Of a stretch of 64,000 bases of DNA, positions 32,429-41,302 are shown piece by piece. The position numbers were made by a program, and so were the translations under genes. The notes beneath the pieces were generated by a model. It had not been told where the DNA came from. It was given only the letters and a program-made list of their open reading frames with translations, and did no database searches. The stretch spans positions 124,001 to 188,000 of the forward strand of contig NZ_JANKBZ010000019.1 in the NCBI RefSeq assembly GCF_024623785.1, in the 5' to 3' direction. This DNA comes from Archangium lipolyticum. Lineage in GTDB: Bacteria; Myxococcota; Myxococcia; Myxococcales; Myxococcaceae. Position 1 is the stretch's first letter; every line of letters starts with the position of its first letter.

Positions 32429-32893
32429 GCGAGGGGGAATCGCACGTTCCCGGGACGTCGCGCGTCCGTCATCGGGAGGAGGTCGGTCATCCGGAGGAGG
32501 GTCGGTCAACCGGGGGATGGCGAACCGCGTGGGCCGAACAGCGGCAACAGCGAGCCCATCTCCGTGCCGCAGGATCTGCGTCTGGCGCGCCAGCTCGGGG
32601 ATGCCCGGTTCACTGCAGACCTGCCCACTCCCTCAACACGCCTCCCATCCTTCTTATACGCCTCAGCCGCGTCTACACGCAGATGCCCGAGGGCAAGGTC
32701 TTCGCGAAGAACATGAACCGGCTGGCGAAGGCGAGCCTCGTGTGGGGCGACGAGGTGCTGGACCGGGTGGCCTCGCGCGTCTTCCACCTTGAGGAACTGG
32801 AGAAGCGCTGACGGCGTCGGCGGGATGGCCCGTAATGGAGCACCTGACTGGAGTCGCGGTAGTGGGGCTCCATGTGTATCCTCACGGGCGACC
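32429..32893. other. Intergenic region left of defence-like cassette
   Basis: It separates the VWA gene from the methyltransferase-ATPase fusion. The only protein-like content is a plus-strand tail at 32683-32811. No clear promoter hexamers or terminator were found. Confidence 0.5.
32683..32811 (+). pseudogene. C-terminal remnant or very small gene
   Basis: A 42-residue plus-strand frame from ATG 32683 to TGA 32809 has strong protein character (VFAKNMNRLAKASLVW, then DRVASRVFHLEELEKR). The frame stays open with sensible residues for some 10 codons upstream, so it looks like the tail of a lost helical protein. It ends 82 nt before the methyltransferase-ATPase gene and may mark the left break of the inserted cassette. 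I do not recognise the family. Confidence 0.4.
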
Positions 32894-35812
32894 ATGCCGA
32901 CGCCTCGTGAAGTCCTGGAGCTCCTCCCGAGGGCCGACCTCCTCTGGCTGGCCGATCGTCTCGGTGTCGAACCGCCCGGGCGGCGCAGCAAGCAGCCGAT
33001 CGTGGACGCTCTGGTCTCGTTGCCAGGAGGGAAGGCCGAGGAGATGTTGCTCCTGCTCAGCCGGGAGCAACTGAAGGAGTTGTGCCGCAAGCTGGGCCTG
33101 GAGACAGGTGGGCGGGACAAGGCTGGATTGGTTGCGCGCCTGCTCTCCGAGAGCACCAGCGAGGCTGTGGAGGCGGCAGAACCTGTTTCTGTTTACGGTG
33201 AAGCCCCGACCTCGGTCTCAATAGTGGCCGCCTTTCCCCGAAGGGTGAGTGGGGCGCAGCTCCTCGACCAGCTCCTCGGTTCCTTTGAATTCTTGCGTGG
33301 CACGGGAGAGCCGGTCCATCACCGGACATCCCTCTCCGTTCTGCTCTTGCTGAAACGCCTCAACGACGTATTCGAAGAGCGCGTCGCCGAACTCCTGGCG
33401 GAAGGAGCACCCGAGGCTGTTGCCTATGGAGACCCCGATGAACACGAGTTCTTCATCCCTGAGGAGGCGAGATGGTCAAGGCTCAGGTACCTCTCGCATC
33501 TCCACATCGACCATGATCTGAACCGCGCCTGTTCGATCATTGAGCATGCGAATCCACAGCTCGAGCGTGTACTCACTTCGGTCGATTTCGCGGATGAACG
33601 ATGGTTCGGCGGTCCTTCCCAGCGGAAGTCATTGCTTCAAACGCTTGTCCATTCTTTCTCAGGGCTCCCGCTCCATGAGCTCGCTCTGGCAGAACCGGGT
33701 GCGCTTGGGCATGCCTATTCGGCCTTTCTCGAGCAGACAGCGCATCGGGCTAGGAAACGTGGGGGAACATCCTTTACGCCCGTGATGCTCGTGAGGCTCA
33801 TGGTCGAACTCCTCGATCCACAAGAAGGCATGAGCATTTGTGATCCGGTGTGCGGCACAGGCTCGACGTTGCTCGGATGCGCGGAGTACGTCGAAGCACA
33901 CGGAGGCGATGCAAGGAATATCCGACTCGAAGGGCAGGAGAAGCAGATCGACAATTGGGTTCTGGCCAGGATCAACATGCTCCTGCACGGGCTGCATGAA
34001 GCCAGGATTGAAGCGGGCGATACGATTCGAGAGCCCAGGCTGGTGACGGATGGTCAGTTGGACCGCTATGACCGAGTGATTGCCAATCCTCCCTTCTCCC
34101 TCCGTTGGTGGGGGCACGAGGTAGCGTCGTACGATCCCTACGGACGTTTCCGGTATGGCATGCCGCCTCGGGATCACGGCGACTTCGCCTTCCTCCAGCA
34201 CATGGTCGCGACGTTGAAGCCGAGTGGTCAGCTCGCGACGGTCGTACCGCATGGTGTGCTGTTCCGCGGGAAGGTGGAGGCGAAGATACGCGCCGCGATG
34301 CTAGGCGATGATTTGTTCGAGGCAGTGATAGGGCTTCCTGGTGGGCTGTTCCTTGGCACCTCTCTCCCGGCGGCGATCCTGGTCTTGAACCGGAGTAAAC
34401 CAGAGAAGAGGAAGGGAAAGGTCCTCTTCATCGATGCCTCGCAGGAATTCCATGAAGAGCGTCCGTGGAACCGCCTACGCGCCGAGGATGTCGCCAGAAT
34501 CGTCACGACCTTCAACGAATTCGTGGACGTCCCGCGCTATGCCCGTGTGGTTGGCCTGGACGAGATCTCCGCGAATGAGTTCAGTCTCGCCATCCACCGT
34601 TACGTCGAAGCCCGGCCGCTGGCTGCGGAGGAGCGGACGGAGAGTCTGGAGCAGATGTGGCGCCGCATCGAGCTCAAGAACTACCGGAGCATCGCCGAGG
34701 CCAGCGTGGAACTCGCTCCCTTCACGGTGGTGGTGGGTCCCAATGGCAGCGGAAAGTCCAACTTCGCCGATGCCTTCGTGTTCGCGCGGGACGTAGCGAC
34801 GGATGCCGAGACGGCCGTGGAGCGGCGCGGAGGCCTAGTGGGTCTCCGGCGCTGGCAGCCTGGAGAGGATGCCGACCTGTCCGTGGACATCCGCTCAGCC
34901 ACGTCCCGCGCTGGCCTGGATACCGACTATCTACGCCATCAATTCACCATTCGTAGCGGAGGCGCGCGGGGCTGGTCCTTCCGCGGTGAGACCATCGAAC
35001 TCTTCTCCCGAGGAGAGCCGGTGTTTCGCCTCGAGAGAACGCCCGACGGTGTGGAGATCGAGCCAGAACGGCTGGCTGAGTCGGTCGGACGGATTCCCAA
35101 ATTGAGCGAGACCGCCAGCGCGATGGTCTTCGCCCGTCAGATGGCGCTCCTGTCCCGCCGCGCGGCTCTCCGAAACGTGACGCGGATCCGCCTCAACCCG
35201 GACTCCATGCGCCAGCCGCAGTCCGCCACGGAGAACACGCGCTTGGAGGAGTCGGGGAGCAATATCGCGGTGGCCTTCAGGAGCCTCGACGCCACGGGGC
35301 AGGAGCGTGTGGTCACGGCTATGCAGCGGATCGTCCCCGGGCTCCTCCGCATGTTCGTGGAGTCGTTCGATCGCTTCCTGCTCTTGCGTTTCGAGCAACA
35401 GCAGGCCGCTGGTCAGGTGGCGAGGTTCTCGACGAGCGAGATGTCGGAAGGCGCCTTGCGTGCTCTCGGAATCCTCGTTGCCACGCAGCAGATGGCTCGG
35501 GACGAGCTCCTCATCATCGAGGAGCCGGAGGTCGCCATCCATGTCGGAGCGGCCCAGTTGCTCTTCGATGTCTTGAAGGACGCCTCGACCCAAGGCTCGG
35601 TGCTCATCACCACGCACAGCGCGGATCTCCTCGATGCCGCGCGCGAGGAGGAGATTCTCGTGTGCTCCTATCGTGACGGGGTGACGCAGGTAGGCCCGCT
35701 CGCGTCCGTGCAGCGTGAGGTCGTCCGGCAAGGGCTGTTTACCGTGGCTGAGCTCATGCGCTCCGAGCCTCTCCGGATCGAAGGTGACGAGCCCGGCATC
35801 GTCCAACTCTGA
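32894..35812 (+). CDS. SAP-SAP-HsdM adenine methyltransferase fused to OLD/AAA_21-type ATPase
   Basis: 972 residues from ATG 32894. Residues 5-38 and 48-82 resemble two SAP DNA-binding motifs (LADRLGVEPPGRRSKQ; LCRKLGLETGGRDKAGL). An HsdM-type N-terminal helical domain follows. Methyltransferase motifs are intact: SFTPVMLVRLM near 290, motif I DPVCGTGS at 317, motif IV NPPF at 398-401, GLPGGLFLGTS near 480 and the terminal SLAIHRYVE near 563. From Met588 a new module starts as a free ATPase would (MWRRIELKNYRSI): Walker A GPNGSGKSN (K621), SEGALRALGIL, Walker B LLIIEEPE (876-877) and TTHSADLLD (H908). The methyltransferase half is about 55-60% GC in sampled lines. No HsdS or HsdR is adjacent. 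Predicted DNA modification plus ATP-driven sensing. Confidence 0.9.
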   Translation: MPTPREVLELLPRADLLWLADRLGVEPPGRRSKQPIVDALVSLPGGKAEEMLLLLSREQLKELCRKLGLETGGRDKAGLVARLLSESTSEAVEAAEPVSVYGEAPTSVSIVAAFPRRVSGAQLLDQLLGSFEFLRGTGEPVHHRTSLSVLLLLKRLNDVFEERVAELLAEGAPEAVAYGDPDEHEFFIPEEARWSRLRYLSHLHIDHDLNRACSIIEHANPQLERVLTSVDFADERWFGGPSQRKSLLQTLVHSFSGLPLHELALAEPGALGHAYSAFLEQTAHRARKRGGTSFTPVMLVRLMVELLDPQEGMSICDPVCGTGSTLLGCAEYVEAHGGDARNIRLEGQEKQIDNWVLARINMLLHGLHEARIEAGDTIREPRLVTDGQLDRYDRVIANPPFSLRWWGHEVASYDPYGRFRYGMPPRDHGDFAFLQHMVATLKPSGQLATVVPHGVLFRGKVEAKIRAAMLGDDLFEAVIGLPGGLFLGTSLPAAILVLNRSKPEKRKGKVLFIDASQEFHEERPWNRLRAEDVARIVTTFNEFVDVPRYARVVGLDEISANEFSLAIHRYVEARPLAAEERTESLEQMWRRIELKNYRSIAEASVELAPFTVVVGPNGSGKSNFADAFVFARDVATDAETAVERRGGLVGLRRWQPGEDADLSVDIRSATSRAGLDTDYLRHQFTIRSGGARGWSFRGETIELFSRGEPVFRLERTPDGVEIEPERLAESVGRIPKLSETASAMVFARQMALLSRRAALRNVTRIRLNPDSMRQPQSATENTRLEESGSNIAVAFRSLDATGQERVVTAMQRIVPGLLRMFVESFDRFLLLRFEQQQAAGQVARFSTSEMSEGALRALGILVATQQMARDELLIIEEPEVAIHVGAAQLLFDVLKDASTQGSVLITTHSADLLDAAREEEILVCSYRDGVTQVGPLASVQREVVRQGLFTVAELMRSEPLRIEGDEPGIVQL
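34655..34657 (+). promoter_or_regulatory. Possible internal start of free ATPase
   Basis: This in-frame ATG is codon 588 of the fusion. TCTGGAGCAG just upstream supplies a GGAG ribosome-binding sequence. The residues after it are the canonical first residues of AAA_21 ATPases, so a 385-residue ATPase could be made separately. Confidence 0.4.
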
Positions 35813-35822
35813 ACCGTGCACC

Positions 35823-36422
35823 ATGAAGAAGCTCGTCTGCATCGTCGAGGGAAAGGGCGAGGTGGGGGCGGTCCCGAACCTGTGTATGCGGATCCTGCGC
35901 CAGCATCTCAATGACTTCGAGTGGGTCGTTGACAATGCGCCCATCCGGCACCCACGCGGCAAGTTGGTGGATGAGAAGAAGAGGAGCCCGCAGCGCACCT
36001 GTCAGGAAGAAGGTCTGCGGAGGGCCATCCAACTCGCGAAGCAGACCCGGAAGGCGAATGCGGTGCTCGTATTATGCGACGCTGACGATGACTGTCCTGC
36101 GACATGGGGCCCTGATGCCGCGCGTGTGGTGAGCAGCCTCTCGTTGGGAGGCGCGGTCATGGCTCTTCGAGAGTACGAGACCTGGCTGTTGCTCAACTAC
36201 ACGGACGAGCAACTGGCGGGCGCTGGTGCGCCAGAGCCTGAACGCAAGCGGGGAGCCAAGGAAGCGTTGGCCAGACTCGTCCCAAGTTATCTCCCGACGA
36301 CCCACCAGCTGCGGGAGACTCAGAAGCTCGATATCGCTCGTGTCCGCAAGCGTTCCGACAGTTTCGACAAGCTCGTCCGCGTGTTGGCGTCCATCTCGGG
36401 AACGACTCCACCCGCTCGATAG
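35823..36422 (+). CDS. DUF4276 / TOPRIM-like protein, probable effector partner of the ATPase
   Basis: 199 residues from ATG 35823, 10 nt after the fusion gene, so the two form an operon. The N-terminal strand carries the acidic residue of a TOPRIM-type fold (LVCIVEGKGEVGAVPNL) and a middle strand carries the acidic cluster LVLCDADDDCP. Both are features of DUF4276 proteins. A basic C-terminal part (ERKRGAKEAL, RVRKRSDSF) follows. TOPRIM-class partners of OLD/AAA_15 ATPases, such as AriB of PARIS and RloB, act as nucleases. By analogy this is the likely toxic or cutting component, released or triggered by the upstream ATPase. The nuclease role is inference. Confidence 0.82.
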   Translation: MKKLVCIVEGKGEVGAVPNLCMRILRQHLNDFEWVVDNAPIRHPRGKLVDEKKRSPQRTCQEEGLRRAIQLAKQTRKANAVLVLCDADDDCPATWGPDAARVVSSLSLGGAVMALREYETWLLLNYTDEQLAGAGAPEPERKRGAKEALARLVPSYLPTTHQLRETQKLDIARVRKRSDSFDKLVRVLASISGTTPPAR

Positions 36423-36593: not shown

Positions 36594-36625
36594 CGAACAC
36601 GTCCACCGCGAATGTCCTGCGCGGC

Positions 36626-36712
36626 AACTCTGCCTGGTCCACTCGCGGCGTCCTCTCCCTCATCGGTTCCTTCCTGGCCGCTGCCTCGAGCGCTACGCTC
36701 GCCTCCTCACCT
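36626..36712 (+). repeat. Inverted repeat arm A flanking cytochrome operon
   Basis: About 87 bp, roughly 90% identical by eye to the reverse complement of 39216-39305. It encodes a hydrophobic peptide containing AWSTRGVLSLIGSFLAAA. Most differences are at codon third positions, so both arms derive from the same coding sequence. The protein family is not recognised. Confidence 0.75.
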
Positions 36713-37112: not shown

Positions 37113-37190
37113 CGCTCGCGGGAGCTACGCCCTCGCCGCGAGCACCATCTGCCGCATGTGGTAGTCGACGGACACGGCCGGGTCGGGGCG
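37113..37190 (+). repeat. 78-bp direct repeat, copy 1 (methyltransferase gene tail)
   Basis: Identical by eye to 40054-40131 in the same orientation. On the minus strand it encodes the last residues of a methyltransferase (PAVSVDYHMRQMVLAARA, stop at 37125-37127). Here the tail is joined to unrelated DNA, so it is a translocated or duplicated fragment. Confidence 0.8.
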
Positions 37191-37193
37191 CTC

Positions 37194-37213
37194 CACGTGG
37201 CGGGAAGGAGAAG
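37194..37213 (+). repeat. 20-bp direct repeat, copy 2
   Basis: Second copy of the 20-bp element at 36574-36593. It directly adjoins the 78-bp methyltransferase-tail repeat. Confidence 0.7.
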
Positions 37214-39098: not shown

Positions 39099-39372
39099 CG
39101 GCCAAGAGTAGCCTCCCGGCGCGTGCGGGTCCCCTTCTTCTCGGAGGAGGCTTGAAAGGTAATGAACAACCCGTGGATGCCCTCATGCGCATCCTCGTCG
39201 CGGCCCTCGTCACGCAGGTGGGGAGAAGGCGAGCGTGGCACCCCAGGCAGCGGCCAGGAAGGAACCGATGAAGGAGAAGACGCCGCGAGTGGACCAGGCG
39301 GGGTTGTTCAGGAGGACGTTCAACTTTGCCGTGTTGAAATCCAAGATGGAAAGAAGAGAATAAAAATTCGAT
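39099..39372. other. Intergenic with inverted repeat arm B
   Basis: It contains the 39216-39305 repeat. GC falls sharply after 39310, with an A-rich stretch (39340-39368) just before the next gene. No clear promoter hexamers. Confidence 0.5.
39216..39305 (-). repeat. Inverted repeat arm B flanking cytochrome operon
   Basis: 90 bp, the inverted partner of 36626-36712 with a 3-bp length difference. On the minus strand it encodes a peptide containing AWSTRGVFSFIGSFLAAA. It lies upstream of the cytochrome operon, so the two arms enclose it. Confidence 0.75.
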
Positions 39373-40053: not shown

Positions 40054-40131
40054 CGCTCGCGGGAGCTACGCCCTCGCCGCGAGCACCATCTGCCGCATGT
40101 GGTAGTCGACGGACACGGCCGGGTCGGGGCG
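40054..40131 (+). repeat. 78-bp direct repeat, copy 2
   Basis: Same sequence and orientation as 37113-37190. This copy is in its probable native place, as the end of the methyltransferase fragment at 40066-40383. Confidence 0.8.
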
Positions 40132-40383
40132 TTCCGCGAGCTCGCGGAGCTCCGCCTCCAAGGCATCGAGCTGCACGGCGGAGTAGTGGCTCGACACGAA
40201 GGCGTCGCTCCGCCAGGTCTGGATGTTGAGGTAATGGAGCATGGCCATGCGATGGCCCGGCAAGGTCATGCGAACCACCTGGTCGCGCACGACCTCCACG
40301 CCGGCCTCCCGCGCGAGCGCGGGGAGCGCCCTGCCCACGTGCAGGTCCTGCCCGTGCGCGCGGCACGGGGTCGTCACGGCCAT
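40066..40383 (-). pseudogene. 5'-truncated SAM-dependent methyltransferase
   Basis: 105 codons from ATG 40383. The content is the C-terminal third of a class I methyltransferase (HVGRALPALAREAGVEVV, then strand-helix elements to VDYHMRQMVLAARA). The SAM-binding GxGxG part is missing, so it cannot be an active enzyme. The frame begins 2 nt after the stop of the DUF4336 gene. The last 22 codons are repeated at 37125. Confidence 0.65.
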
Positions 40384-41051: not shown

Positions 41052-41302
41052 GGCGTGGAATCTCGCACAACCCTGGGCAGCTACGGGCGTACGAATTTCC
41101 AGTCGGTGTCGTTCGACCCCTGCTGAGCAGGTTCTTGCCTCCTCCGGCTCCGCCCCTGCTTGAGGGAACGATGAAATTCCCTGGGTCACCAGTCACGGGT
41201 AAGGGCCTTCGGACGTCCATGGGTTGGTAGGGGCGCGGCGAACGCGGGGGATTTCACCCGTGAACGGTTATTTCCTGGCAGCTCAACTTCACGAGGCGTT
41301 GC

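What the first reader, a model, noticed from the sequence alone, without database searches (positions are those of the whole stretch)
32906..33142. Tandem SAP-like motifs at the N-terminus of the methyltransferase
Two copies of the helix-loop-helix pattern (LADRLGVEPPGRRSKQ and LCRKLGLETGGRDKAG) may provide DNA binding in place of the missing HsdS specificity subunit.
Basis: inference. Interest (0 to 1): 0.5.

Follow-up and report, generated by a model that had tools for sequence, protein, structure and literature searches.

The report
SAP-tipped methyltransferase fused to defence ATPase
A myxobacterial DNA methyltransferase carries two small DNA-binding-type domains at its front and, unusually, is welded to a phage-defence-type ATPase at its back, where its normal DNA-recognition partner would dock.

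Summary
Residues 1-88 of the 972-aa protein at 32894-35812 are two copies, 43-44 residues apart, of a helix plus helix-loop-helix. Pfam SAP hits copy 2, the copies are alike beyond shuffles, and the predicted fold resembles the tandem pseudo-SAP/SAP of human DEK. The same tandem SAP caps HsdM proteins in Myxococcota, Acidobacteriota, Planctomycetota and others, and HsdS adjoins them in 23 of 27 assessable loci. So SAP is an accessory of type I methyltransferases, not an HsdS substitute by origin.

This copy differs. Its HsdM lacks the C-terminal tail that docks HsdS and runs in frame into a complete HEC-01A (OLD-type ABC) ATPase, followed by the DUF4276 (TOPRIM-like) partner gene. I found no other such fusion in searches of 195 phylum genomes, plasmids and phages. 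Residues 118-360 changed at 46 of 100 near-invariant positions, against 4 of 73 in 361-572, while SAP diverged little more than usual. I read it as an HsdM taken out of its HsdS complex and reused as the DNA-engaging front of a PARIS-like ATPase/TOPRIM module. The anatomy is shown; the function is inferred.

The parts
32894..33025 (+). SAP-like repeat 1 (residues 1-44; helices 4-10, 13-23, 33-41)
   Evidence: AF2 model; Fan1_SAP 23.7 bits, below cut-off 27; repeat test
33026..33157 (+). SAP repeat 2 (residues 45-88; helices 45-54, 57-67, 76-88)
   Evidence: Pfam SAP 26.4 bits in the fragment, 22.5 in the whole protein, cut-off 23.9; AF2 model
33158..33244 (+). Low-confidence linker (residues 89-117)
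   Evidence: pLDDT under 50 for residues 87-114; 8% mean identity to SAP-HsdM homologues
33245..33973 (+). HsdM N-terminal domain plus SAM-binding half (residues 118-360), strongly diverged
   Evidence: HsdM_N 134-255; 46 of 100 near-invariant positions changed
33974..34612 (+). Catalytic half of the N6 methyltransferase (residues 361-573), NPPF kept at 398-401
   Evidence: N6_Mtase 270-574, 289 bits; 4 of 73 near-invariant positions of 361-572 changed
34613..34654 (+). Junction (residues 574-587, 14 codons): stands where homologues carry the C-terminal tail that docks HsdS
   Evidence: alignments, residue numbering checked; tail function from PMC9613975 passages
34655..35812 (+). HEC-01A / OLD-type ABC ATPase domain (residues 588-972), fused in frame; its own start codon survives as ATG 34655; Walker A 615, Walker B 873, H-loop 906
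   Evidence: PADLOC HEC-01A 271.6 bits, 374 of 399 profile positions; AAA_21 79 bits; motifs; nine nearest separate relatives 47-59% identical
35823..36422 (+). HEC-01B, DUF4276 TOPRIM-like partner gene (199 aa)
   Evidence: PADLOC HEC-01B 124.2 bits; Pfam DUF4276 34.9 bits, cut-off 30.2

Best explanation
The N-terminus is a genuine tandem SAP module. It belongs to a subfamily of type I HsdM subunits that normally work with HsdS and HsdR, where it most likely adds non-sequence-specific DNA contact. In this genome an HsdM of that kind lost its HsdS-docking tail and its hsdS and hsdR neighbours, and was joined in frame to HEC-01A, an OLD-type ABC ATPase whose DUF4276 TOPRIM-like partner follows. 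The SAP pair and the conserved catalytic half of the methyltransferase now most likely serve as the DNA-engaging (sensing or tethering) front of a PARIS-like ATPase/TOPRIM defence module. Whether the chimera still methylates is open. Shown: domains, fusion frame, missing tail, neighbourhoods, pattern of divergence. Inferred: DNA binding by SAP, coupling to the ATPase, defence role.
For: Domains and motifs. SAP fold: AF2 plus Foldseek top matches DEK pseudo-SAP/SAP (9l1x_K, prob 0.99, 90 columns, 27% id), Tho1 SAP (4uzw, 0.96), Hcc-1 SAP (2do1, 0.82); VIA: FAN1 8s5a Z 5.3, 59 residues, 2.7 A. DEK's SAP region contacts DNA (PMC12263440 passages).
HsdS adjoins SAP-HsdM in 23 of 27 assessable loci.
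Tail missing: after RYVEA (569-573) come 14 codons, then the HEC-01A start M588, against 40-odd residues in relatives. PacII: M1 tail deletion abolishes complex assembly.
PacII M-M interface residues named in the passages, mapped by hand on the alignment, are altered where I could place them: D25/D33 to E139, D36 to H142, K38 to R144, R252 to A374. The M1 DNA contacts named there are kept: S402, R458, T489, R523. R523 is not conserved in the family, so 3 are informative; M2 R130 could not be placed; M2's DNA contacts were not mapped.
Divergence is uneven: 46 of 100 against 4 of 73 near-invariant positions, Fisher p 9.7e-10. Terminal branch 1.64 against a median of 0.13. No stop in 585 codons where about 18 would be expected in random sequence of that composition. 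This speaks for altered selection rather than decay.
Against: Fold matches are weak (best Foldseek E 0.11; VIA Z at most 5.4, with HOIP, pyrin and death-effector chains scoring alike). The window's SAP pair is not strongly basic (14 K+R, 13 D+E, pI 7.9; family pI 5.1-10.3). One genome only, so the fusion could be recent, inert or an assembly fault. The catalytic-pocket AGEF residues E and F are T and S here, which may mean a dead methyltransferase. SAP itself is also somewhat below the family average (38.9 against 46.8% mean identity). The ATPase part of the full-length model is poor, so no domain geometry is available.
Confidence: 0.5

Rival explanations
1. One reading: the SAP pair replaces HsdS, making this an S-independent, low-specificity DNA methyltransferase that happens to be fused to an ATPase.
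For: No cognate HsdS found in the genome and no docking tail; NPPF, DPxCGxG and the PacII M1 DNA contacts are kept; SAP is retained while the M-M interface residues are altered.
Against: SAP coexists with HsdS in 23 of 27 assessable relatives, so it did not arise as a substitute. SAP domains are usually not sequence specific (established knowledge). The SAM-binding half is the diverged part, and the AGEF pocket residues E and F are replaced.
Confidence: 0.2
2. Relic: a type I operon collapsed by deletion; hsdM now only rides in front of HEC-01A. Stops are purged because they would kill the ATPase, while the methyltransferase part drifts without function.
For: Single genome; the neighbourhood is a variable slot, its sequence not matched beyond 32523 in three congeners until 41239 in one of them; sister loci show similar damage (hsdS-hsdR deletion fusion in L039/L071, truncated SAP-HsdM in L047 and L048).
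Against: Riding along predicts even drift over the methyltransferase. Instead residues 361-572 keep 69 of 73 near-invariant positions, SAP is nearly normal, and only 118-360 diverges.
Confidence: 0.25
3. Chimera: residues 118-360 were exchanged by recombination with a distant HsdM, leaving SAP and the C-terminal half from the original gene.
For: The change of divergence near residue 360 is sharp.
Against: Residues 118-360 alone find no nearer relative in 195 phylum genomes (at most 14 candidates scored per genome): the best are again the SAP-HsdMs, at 46%.
Confidence: 0.05

Closest known systems
Type I HsdM, closest solved chain PacII M1 (PDB 7VRU chain A)
   Same: HsdM_N plus N6_Mtase, NPPF; 300 bits over residues 135-603 with the whole protein, 298 bits over 135-579 with residues 1-585 alone
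   Different: Tandem SAP in front; no C-terminal tail; M-M interface residues altered; no HsdS or HsdR in the locus; ATPase fused behind
SAP-HsdM type I operons (e.g. L034, L036, L054)
   Same: Same tandem SAP and HsdM type, 45-50% identical (six phylum members, matched from residues 1-8 to 603-606; L054 49%)
   Different: They keep the tail and HsdS, usually HsdR; no ATPase fusion
HEC-01 (PADLOC candidate: AAA_21 ATPase plus DUF4276)
   Same: Both genes present in the usual order; DUF4276 found beside HEC-01A in 22 of 24 other loci, in the two others the stretch ends within about 600 bases
   Different: In 24 of 24 other loci the HEC-01A frame has no HsdM match; here it is the C-terminal part of the methyltransferase
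PARIS (AriA OLD-ABC ATPase, AriB TOPRIM)
   Same: OLD-type ABC ATPase with a separate TOPRIM-like protein (description from PMC10568477 and PMC12839542, passages)
   Different: Partner is DUF4276; the five PADLOC hits of P0002 are all HEC-01B; ATPase fused to a methyltransferase
DEK pseudo-SAP/SAP module
   Same: Top Foldseek match, both repeats aligned
   Different: Eukaryotic chromatin protein; E 0.11 only; no homology claimed

Membership tests
SAP domain (PF02037) | Profile match over the curated cut-off | tested here: inconclusive
   Copy 2: 26.4 bits in the fragment (cut-off 23.9) but 22.5 in the whole protein; copy 1 only Fan1_SAP 23.7 (cut-off 27); 20 of 21 N-termini match SAP at E <= 0.1
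SAP domain (PF02037) | Helix, extended loop, helix fold | tested here: met
   AF2 helices 13-23/33-41 and 57-67/76-88, mean pLDDT 77.8; SAP chains among the best Foldseek rows, all with E above 0.1
SAP domain (PF02037) | Binds DNA | not testable with these tools
   needs an assay
Type I HsdM subunit | HsdM_N and N6_Mtase domains, NPPF | tested here: met
   50.8 and 289.3 bits, over cut-offs; NPPF 398-401
Type I HsdM subunit | C-terminal tail that docks HsdS | tested here: not met
   replaced by 14 codons and HEC-01A from residue 588
Type I HsdM subunit | HsdS and HsdR encoded with it | tested here: not met
   PF01420 hits of the own genome lie on C4 and C3 and the PF04313 hit on C4, none on C19
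HEC-01 | HEC-01A ATPase with HEC-01B partner | tested here: met
   271.6 and 124.2 bits; Walker A, Walker B and H-loop present
HEC-01 | HEC-01A as a separate gene | tested here: not met
   fused in frame; no HsdM match in the HEC-01A frame of 24 of 24 other loci
PARIS | AriB-type TOPRIM partner | tested here: inconclusive
   P0002 matches only HEC-01B models (5 of 5 hits); AriA not judged, as only 25 of 135 families for P0001 were shown
MADS (MAD2/MAD3) | Scores over NCBIfam cut-offs | tested here: not met
   MADS2 59.9 against 720 bits, MADS3 91.1 against 420 bits

The most novel reading that the evidence does not exclude
Integrated decoy: the SAP-HsdM front is a bait that still looks like a type I methyltransferase to phage DNA-mimic anti-restriction proteins (Ocr, ArdA) or to phage DNA, and binding of such a trigger fires the fused OLD-ABC ATPase and its TOPRIM partner. 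It would be a one-protein version of what PARIS does in guarding restriction.
Probability: 0.12. Interest if true: 0.8.

Novelty: new variant of a known kind. Interest (0 to 1): 0.5.

Why it matters
Two things look new to me within what I searched. First, a widespread N-terminal tandem SAP on HsdM subunits; two searches of the held library listed no paper on it: the 20 papers shown (of 232 with three of the four terms) each have zero 'SAP domain', and one search found none with its five terms. Second, a methyltransferase that gave up its HsdS docking tail for a defence-type ATPase. If the fusion is functional it makes testable how OLD-ABC/TOPRIM modules such as PARIS, often found beside modification systems, are coupled to DNA or to anti-restriction triggers. 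If it is not, it is a clean record of a type I operon collapsing onto an embedded module.

Tried and rejected
Fusion widespread: looked for and not found. In one search (195 phylum genomes; at most four candidates scored per genome, E <= 1e-20) only the window spans both halves cleanly. One other row, G108:C131 (residues 125-719, three TGA inside), crosses the junction on paper; read afterwards, it is an ordinary HsdM-HsdS-HsdR operon without any HEC-01A match. 0 of 3302 matching plasmid records and 0 of 108 matching phage records have one place over at least 80% of the query. Viral contigs gave 13 HsdM loci, none reaching N-terminal of residue 122, and 18 ATPase loci, all with E 9e-7 or weaker. 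The genome-contig scan used two peptide patterns and kept 80 of 311 loci; none has HEC-01A in the HsdM frame. Phyla other than the window's could not be searched whole.

Long open frames around HEC-01A in G088, G065, G192 looked like fusions, but by eye are GC-rich read-through ahead of the usual start.

'Orphan SAP-HsdM plus HEC-01 seen twice': I first noted L070 as having no HsdS. One search corrected this: half an HsdS lies further down, so HEC-01 there sits inside a type I operon.

Residue numbering: my working notes put the HEC-01A start at 586/34649; searches show M588, ATG 34655, and the report uses that.

Residues 118-360 as a frameshifted stretch: looked at by eye in the alignment, no support, not tested further. 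MADS membership: fails cut-offs.

Literature: DUF4276 gave 0 papers; HEC is not in the main text of PMC8565338, so the expansion 'Hma-embedded candidate' is my recollection. Papers were read only as passages (PMC8565338, PMC9613975, PMC10568477, PMC12263440, PMC12839542) or as listings.

Rows dropped before counts: L062, L064, L071 as duplicates of L038, L036, L039; the tree uses 48 of 86 rows (non-SAP rows numbered above L095 and short ones left out). L041 (SAP and HsdM in different frames), L047 and L048 (fragments), L060 and L081 (no room downstream) are not in the 27. The SAP and HsdS profiles were built from loci of this set, so a very different HsdS could be missed; Pfam is the independent check. 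Fisher's test treats positions as independent.
Full report
What is there. The finding lies in a + strand ORF. The longest start is TTG 32789; the likely start, judged from the homologues, is ATG 32894, giving 972 residues to 35812. Domains in order: tandem SAP (1-88), linker, HsdM_N (134-255) and N6_Mtase (270-574), then an ABC-type ATPase (588-972) that matches PADLOC HEC-01A over 374 of 399 profile positions. The next gene, 35823-36422, is DUF4276 / HEC-01B. The host belongs to the Myxococcota, probably genus Archangium: G063, placed in the same genus as the window, holds a match on a contig of the same length (53,820) as the named Archangium violaceum Cb vi76 record behind L071 (inference).

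Are the SAP motifs real? Yes. Repeat 1 and repeat 2 of the window align better than all of 1000 shuffles, and their profiles over the alignment of 21 N-termini match each other with probability 92.3. Four of the 20 rows tested singly show no repeat. Pfam SAP is found in 20 of 21 N-termini, the window's included, at E <= 0.1. For the window, copy 2 passes the cut-off only when the N-terminus is scanned alone, and copy 1 is seen only by Fan1_SAP under its cut-off. AlphaFold on the 21-row alignment gives helices 4-10, 13-23, 33-41 and 45-54, 57-67, 76-88 (mean pLDDT 77.8); in the full-length model the same region has block means of 81-93 up to residue 80. Foldseek's first four rows are DEK on the nucleosome (pseudo-SAP/SAP), followed by Tho1 SAP and FAN1, but the best E-value is 0.11. 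The second aligner ranks FAN1 among the top, but HOIP, pyrin and death-effector chains score similarly, so the fold call rests on sequence plus structure together.

Does SAP stand in for HsdS? Not in the family. The six 45-50% identical SAP-HsdMs of the phylum lie in type I operons, in several of them followed by a YgjP-like gene (by eye; tested by Pfam only for L039). In home-made profile scans HsdS adjoins the SAP-HsdM gene in 11 of 11 intact phylum loci (in L039 as part of an hsdS-hsdR deletion fusion) and in 12 of 16 assessable, distinct GTDB loci. The four others are L061, L067, L070 and L072. The same SAP pair also caps a second HsdM type (32-35% identical to the window; L042-L046), and on the first type it is replaced by a Cro/XRE-like helix-turn-helix in L040 (HTH by eye). 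It is thus a swappable N-terminal accessory, probably for DNA contact.

What is different here. The homologues end in 40-odd residues after the RYV motif. The window has 14 codons after RYVEA (569-573) and then the first residues of HEC-01A, whose separate relatives begin at or near the equivalent of M588. In PacII this tail forms the four-helix bundle with HsdS, and deleting it from M1 abolishes assembly (PMC9613975, passages read). The window's HsdM corresponds to M1 (NPPF). The PacII M-M interface residues that the passages name, mapped by hand, are altered here where I could place them (E139, H142, R144, A374), and the AGEF pocket residues E and F are T292 and S293, while the M1 DNA-contacting residues are kept (S402, R458, T489, R523). 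R523 is not a family-wide residue; M2 R130 could not be placed with certainty; M2's DNA contacts were not mapped.

Pattern of divergence. Over 85 other HsdMs, 173 positions between 118 and 572 are near-invariant; the window changes 50. The next highest are L110 with 25 of 172 and L089 with 14 of 174. The changes are lopsided: 46 of 100 in 118-360, 4 of 73 in 361-572 (Fisher p 9.7e-10; counts, test). Best identity is 45.5% against 65.1% for the two parts, where SAP members average 77.6% and 72.7% among themselves. The SAP region is 38.9% against 46.8%. Residues 118-360 have no nearer relative in 195 phylum genomes, at most 14 candidates scored in each. The terminal branch of the window is 1.64 changes per column against a median of 0.13, and its place in the tree is unsure. 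About 18 stops would be expected in random sequence of the same composition; there are none. A gene that merely rides in front of the ATPase should drift evenly; this one kept SAP and the catalytic/DNA-contact half, and let go the half that makes the HsdM-HsdM interface and much of the SAM site.

How the fusion may have arisen. HEC-01A and DUF4276 stand side by side in 22 of 24 other phylum loci read, the stretch of the remaining two ending within about 600 bases; an HsdM lies in the stretch read in 1 of the 24. In L070 the pair sits directly behind an unfused SAP-HsdM, with half an hsdS further on, and in L137 behind an HsdM and a 217-aa frame that looks like half an HsdS (by eye). A HEC-01 insertion behind hsdM, followed by loss of the tail, hsdS and hsdR, would give the window's arrangement (inference). 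The locus lies in a variable slot: G065, G062 and G061 all match the window up to 32523; G065 resumes at 41239, while no later match was seen in the G062 and G061 stretches read. GC is 0.60-0.66 across the gene against 0.69 for the window.

Mechanism. I commit to the following at about 0.5: SAP and the conserved methyltransferase half hold or present DNA to a PARIS-like OLD-ABC/TOPRIM effector. PARIS (AriA/AriB) as a two-gene OLD-type system, and OLD-ABC/TOPRIM modules as frequent companions of BREX loci, are from passages of PMC10568477 and PMC12839542. PacII binding of Ocr and ArdA is from PMC9613975 and motivates the decoy reading. The passages I read do not describe this fusion.

Limits. 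One genome; no expression or population data; whole-genome searches were confined to the window's phylum and capped per genome; the ATPase part of the full model is poor because its alignment was thin.

Noticed in passing
L039 7559-8800 (-), same as L071 (Archangium violaceum Cb vi76): hsdS N-terminal part and hsdR C-terminal part lie in one 413-aa frame behind an intact SAP-HsdM: a second deletion fusion in the same operon type and genus.
   Followed up: partly
L070 5992-13782: HEC-01A/B and further genes lie between a full-length SAP-HsdM and half an HsdS; that half is in one open frame with a kinase-like N-terminal part (by eye).
   Followed up: partly
L137 1187-6747: HsdM, a 217-aa frame that looks like half an HsdS, then HEC-01A and DUF4276 in a row: HEC-01 beside type I parts again (1 of 24 HEC-01 loci read).
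   Followed up: partly
L040 8149-9915: Same HsdM type with a Cro/XRE-like helix-turn-helix (by eye) where SAP sits in its relatives.
   Followed up: no
L072 5977-8463: SAP-HsdM in an 829-residue open frame with a weak HsdS match and HsdR directly behind; possibly an M-S fusion.
   Followed up: no
L068 8845-10083: AAA_21 ATPase gene between hsdS and hsdR of a SAP-HsdM operon.
   Followed up: partly
window 36596-36711 and 39220-39335; 37113-37197 and 40054-40138: A 116-nt inverted pair (81%) and an 85-nt direct pair (98%) lie downstream of the locus.
   Followed up: no
window 32523: Three congeners (L165, L166, L167) stop matching the window at this same base, marking a variable slot beside a vWA-type gene (vWA by eye).
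   Followed up: partly
window about 32656-32811: A short frame ending just before the locus looks like the tail of a lost gene.
   Followed up: no
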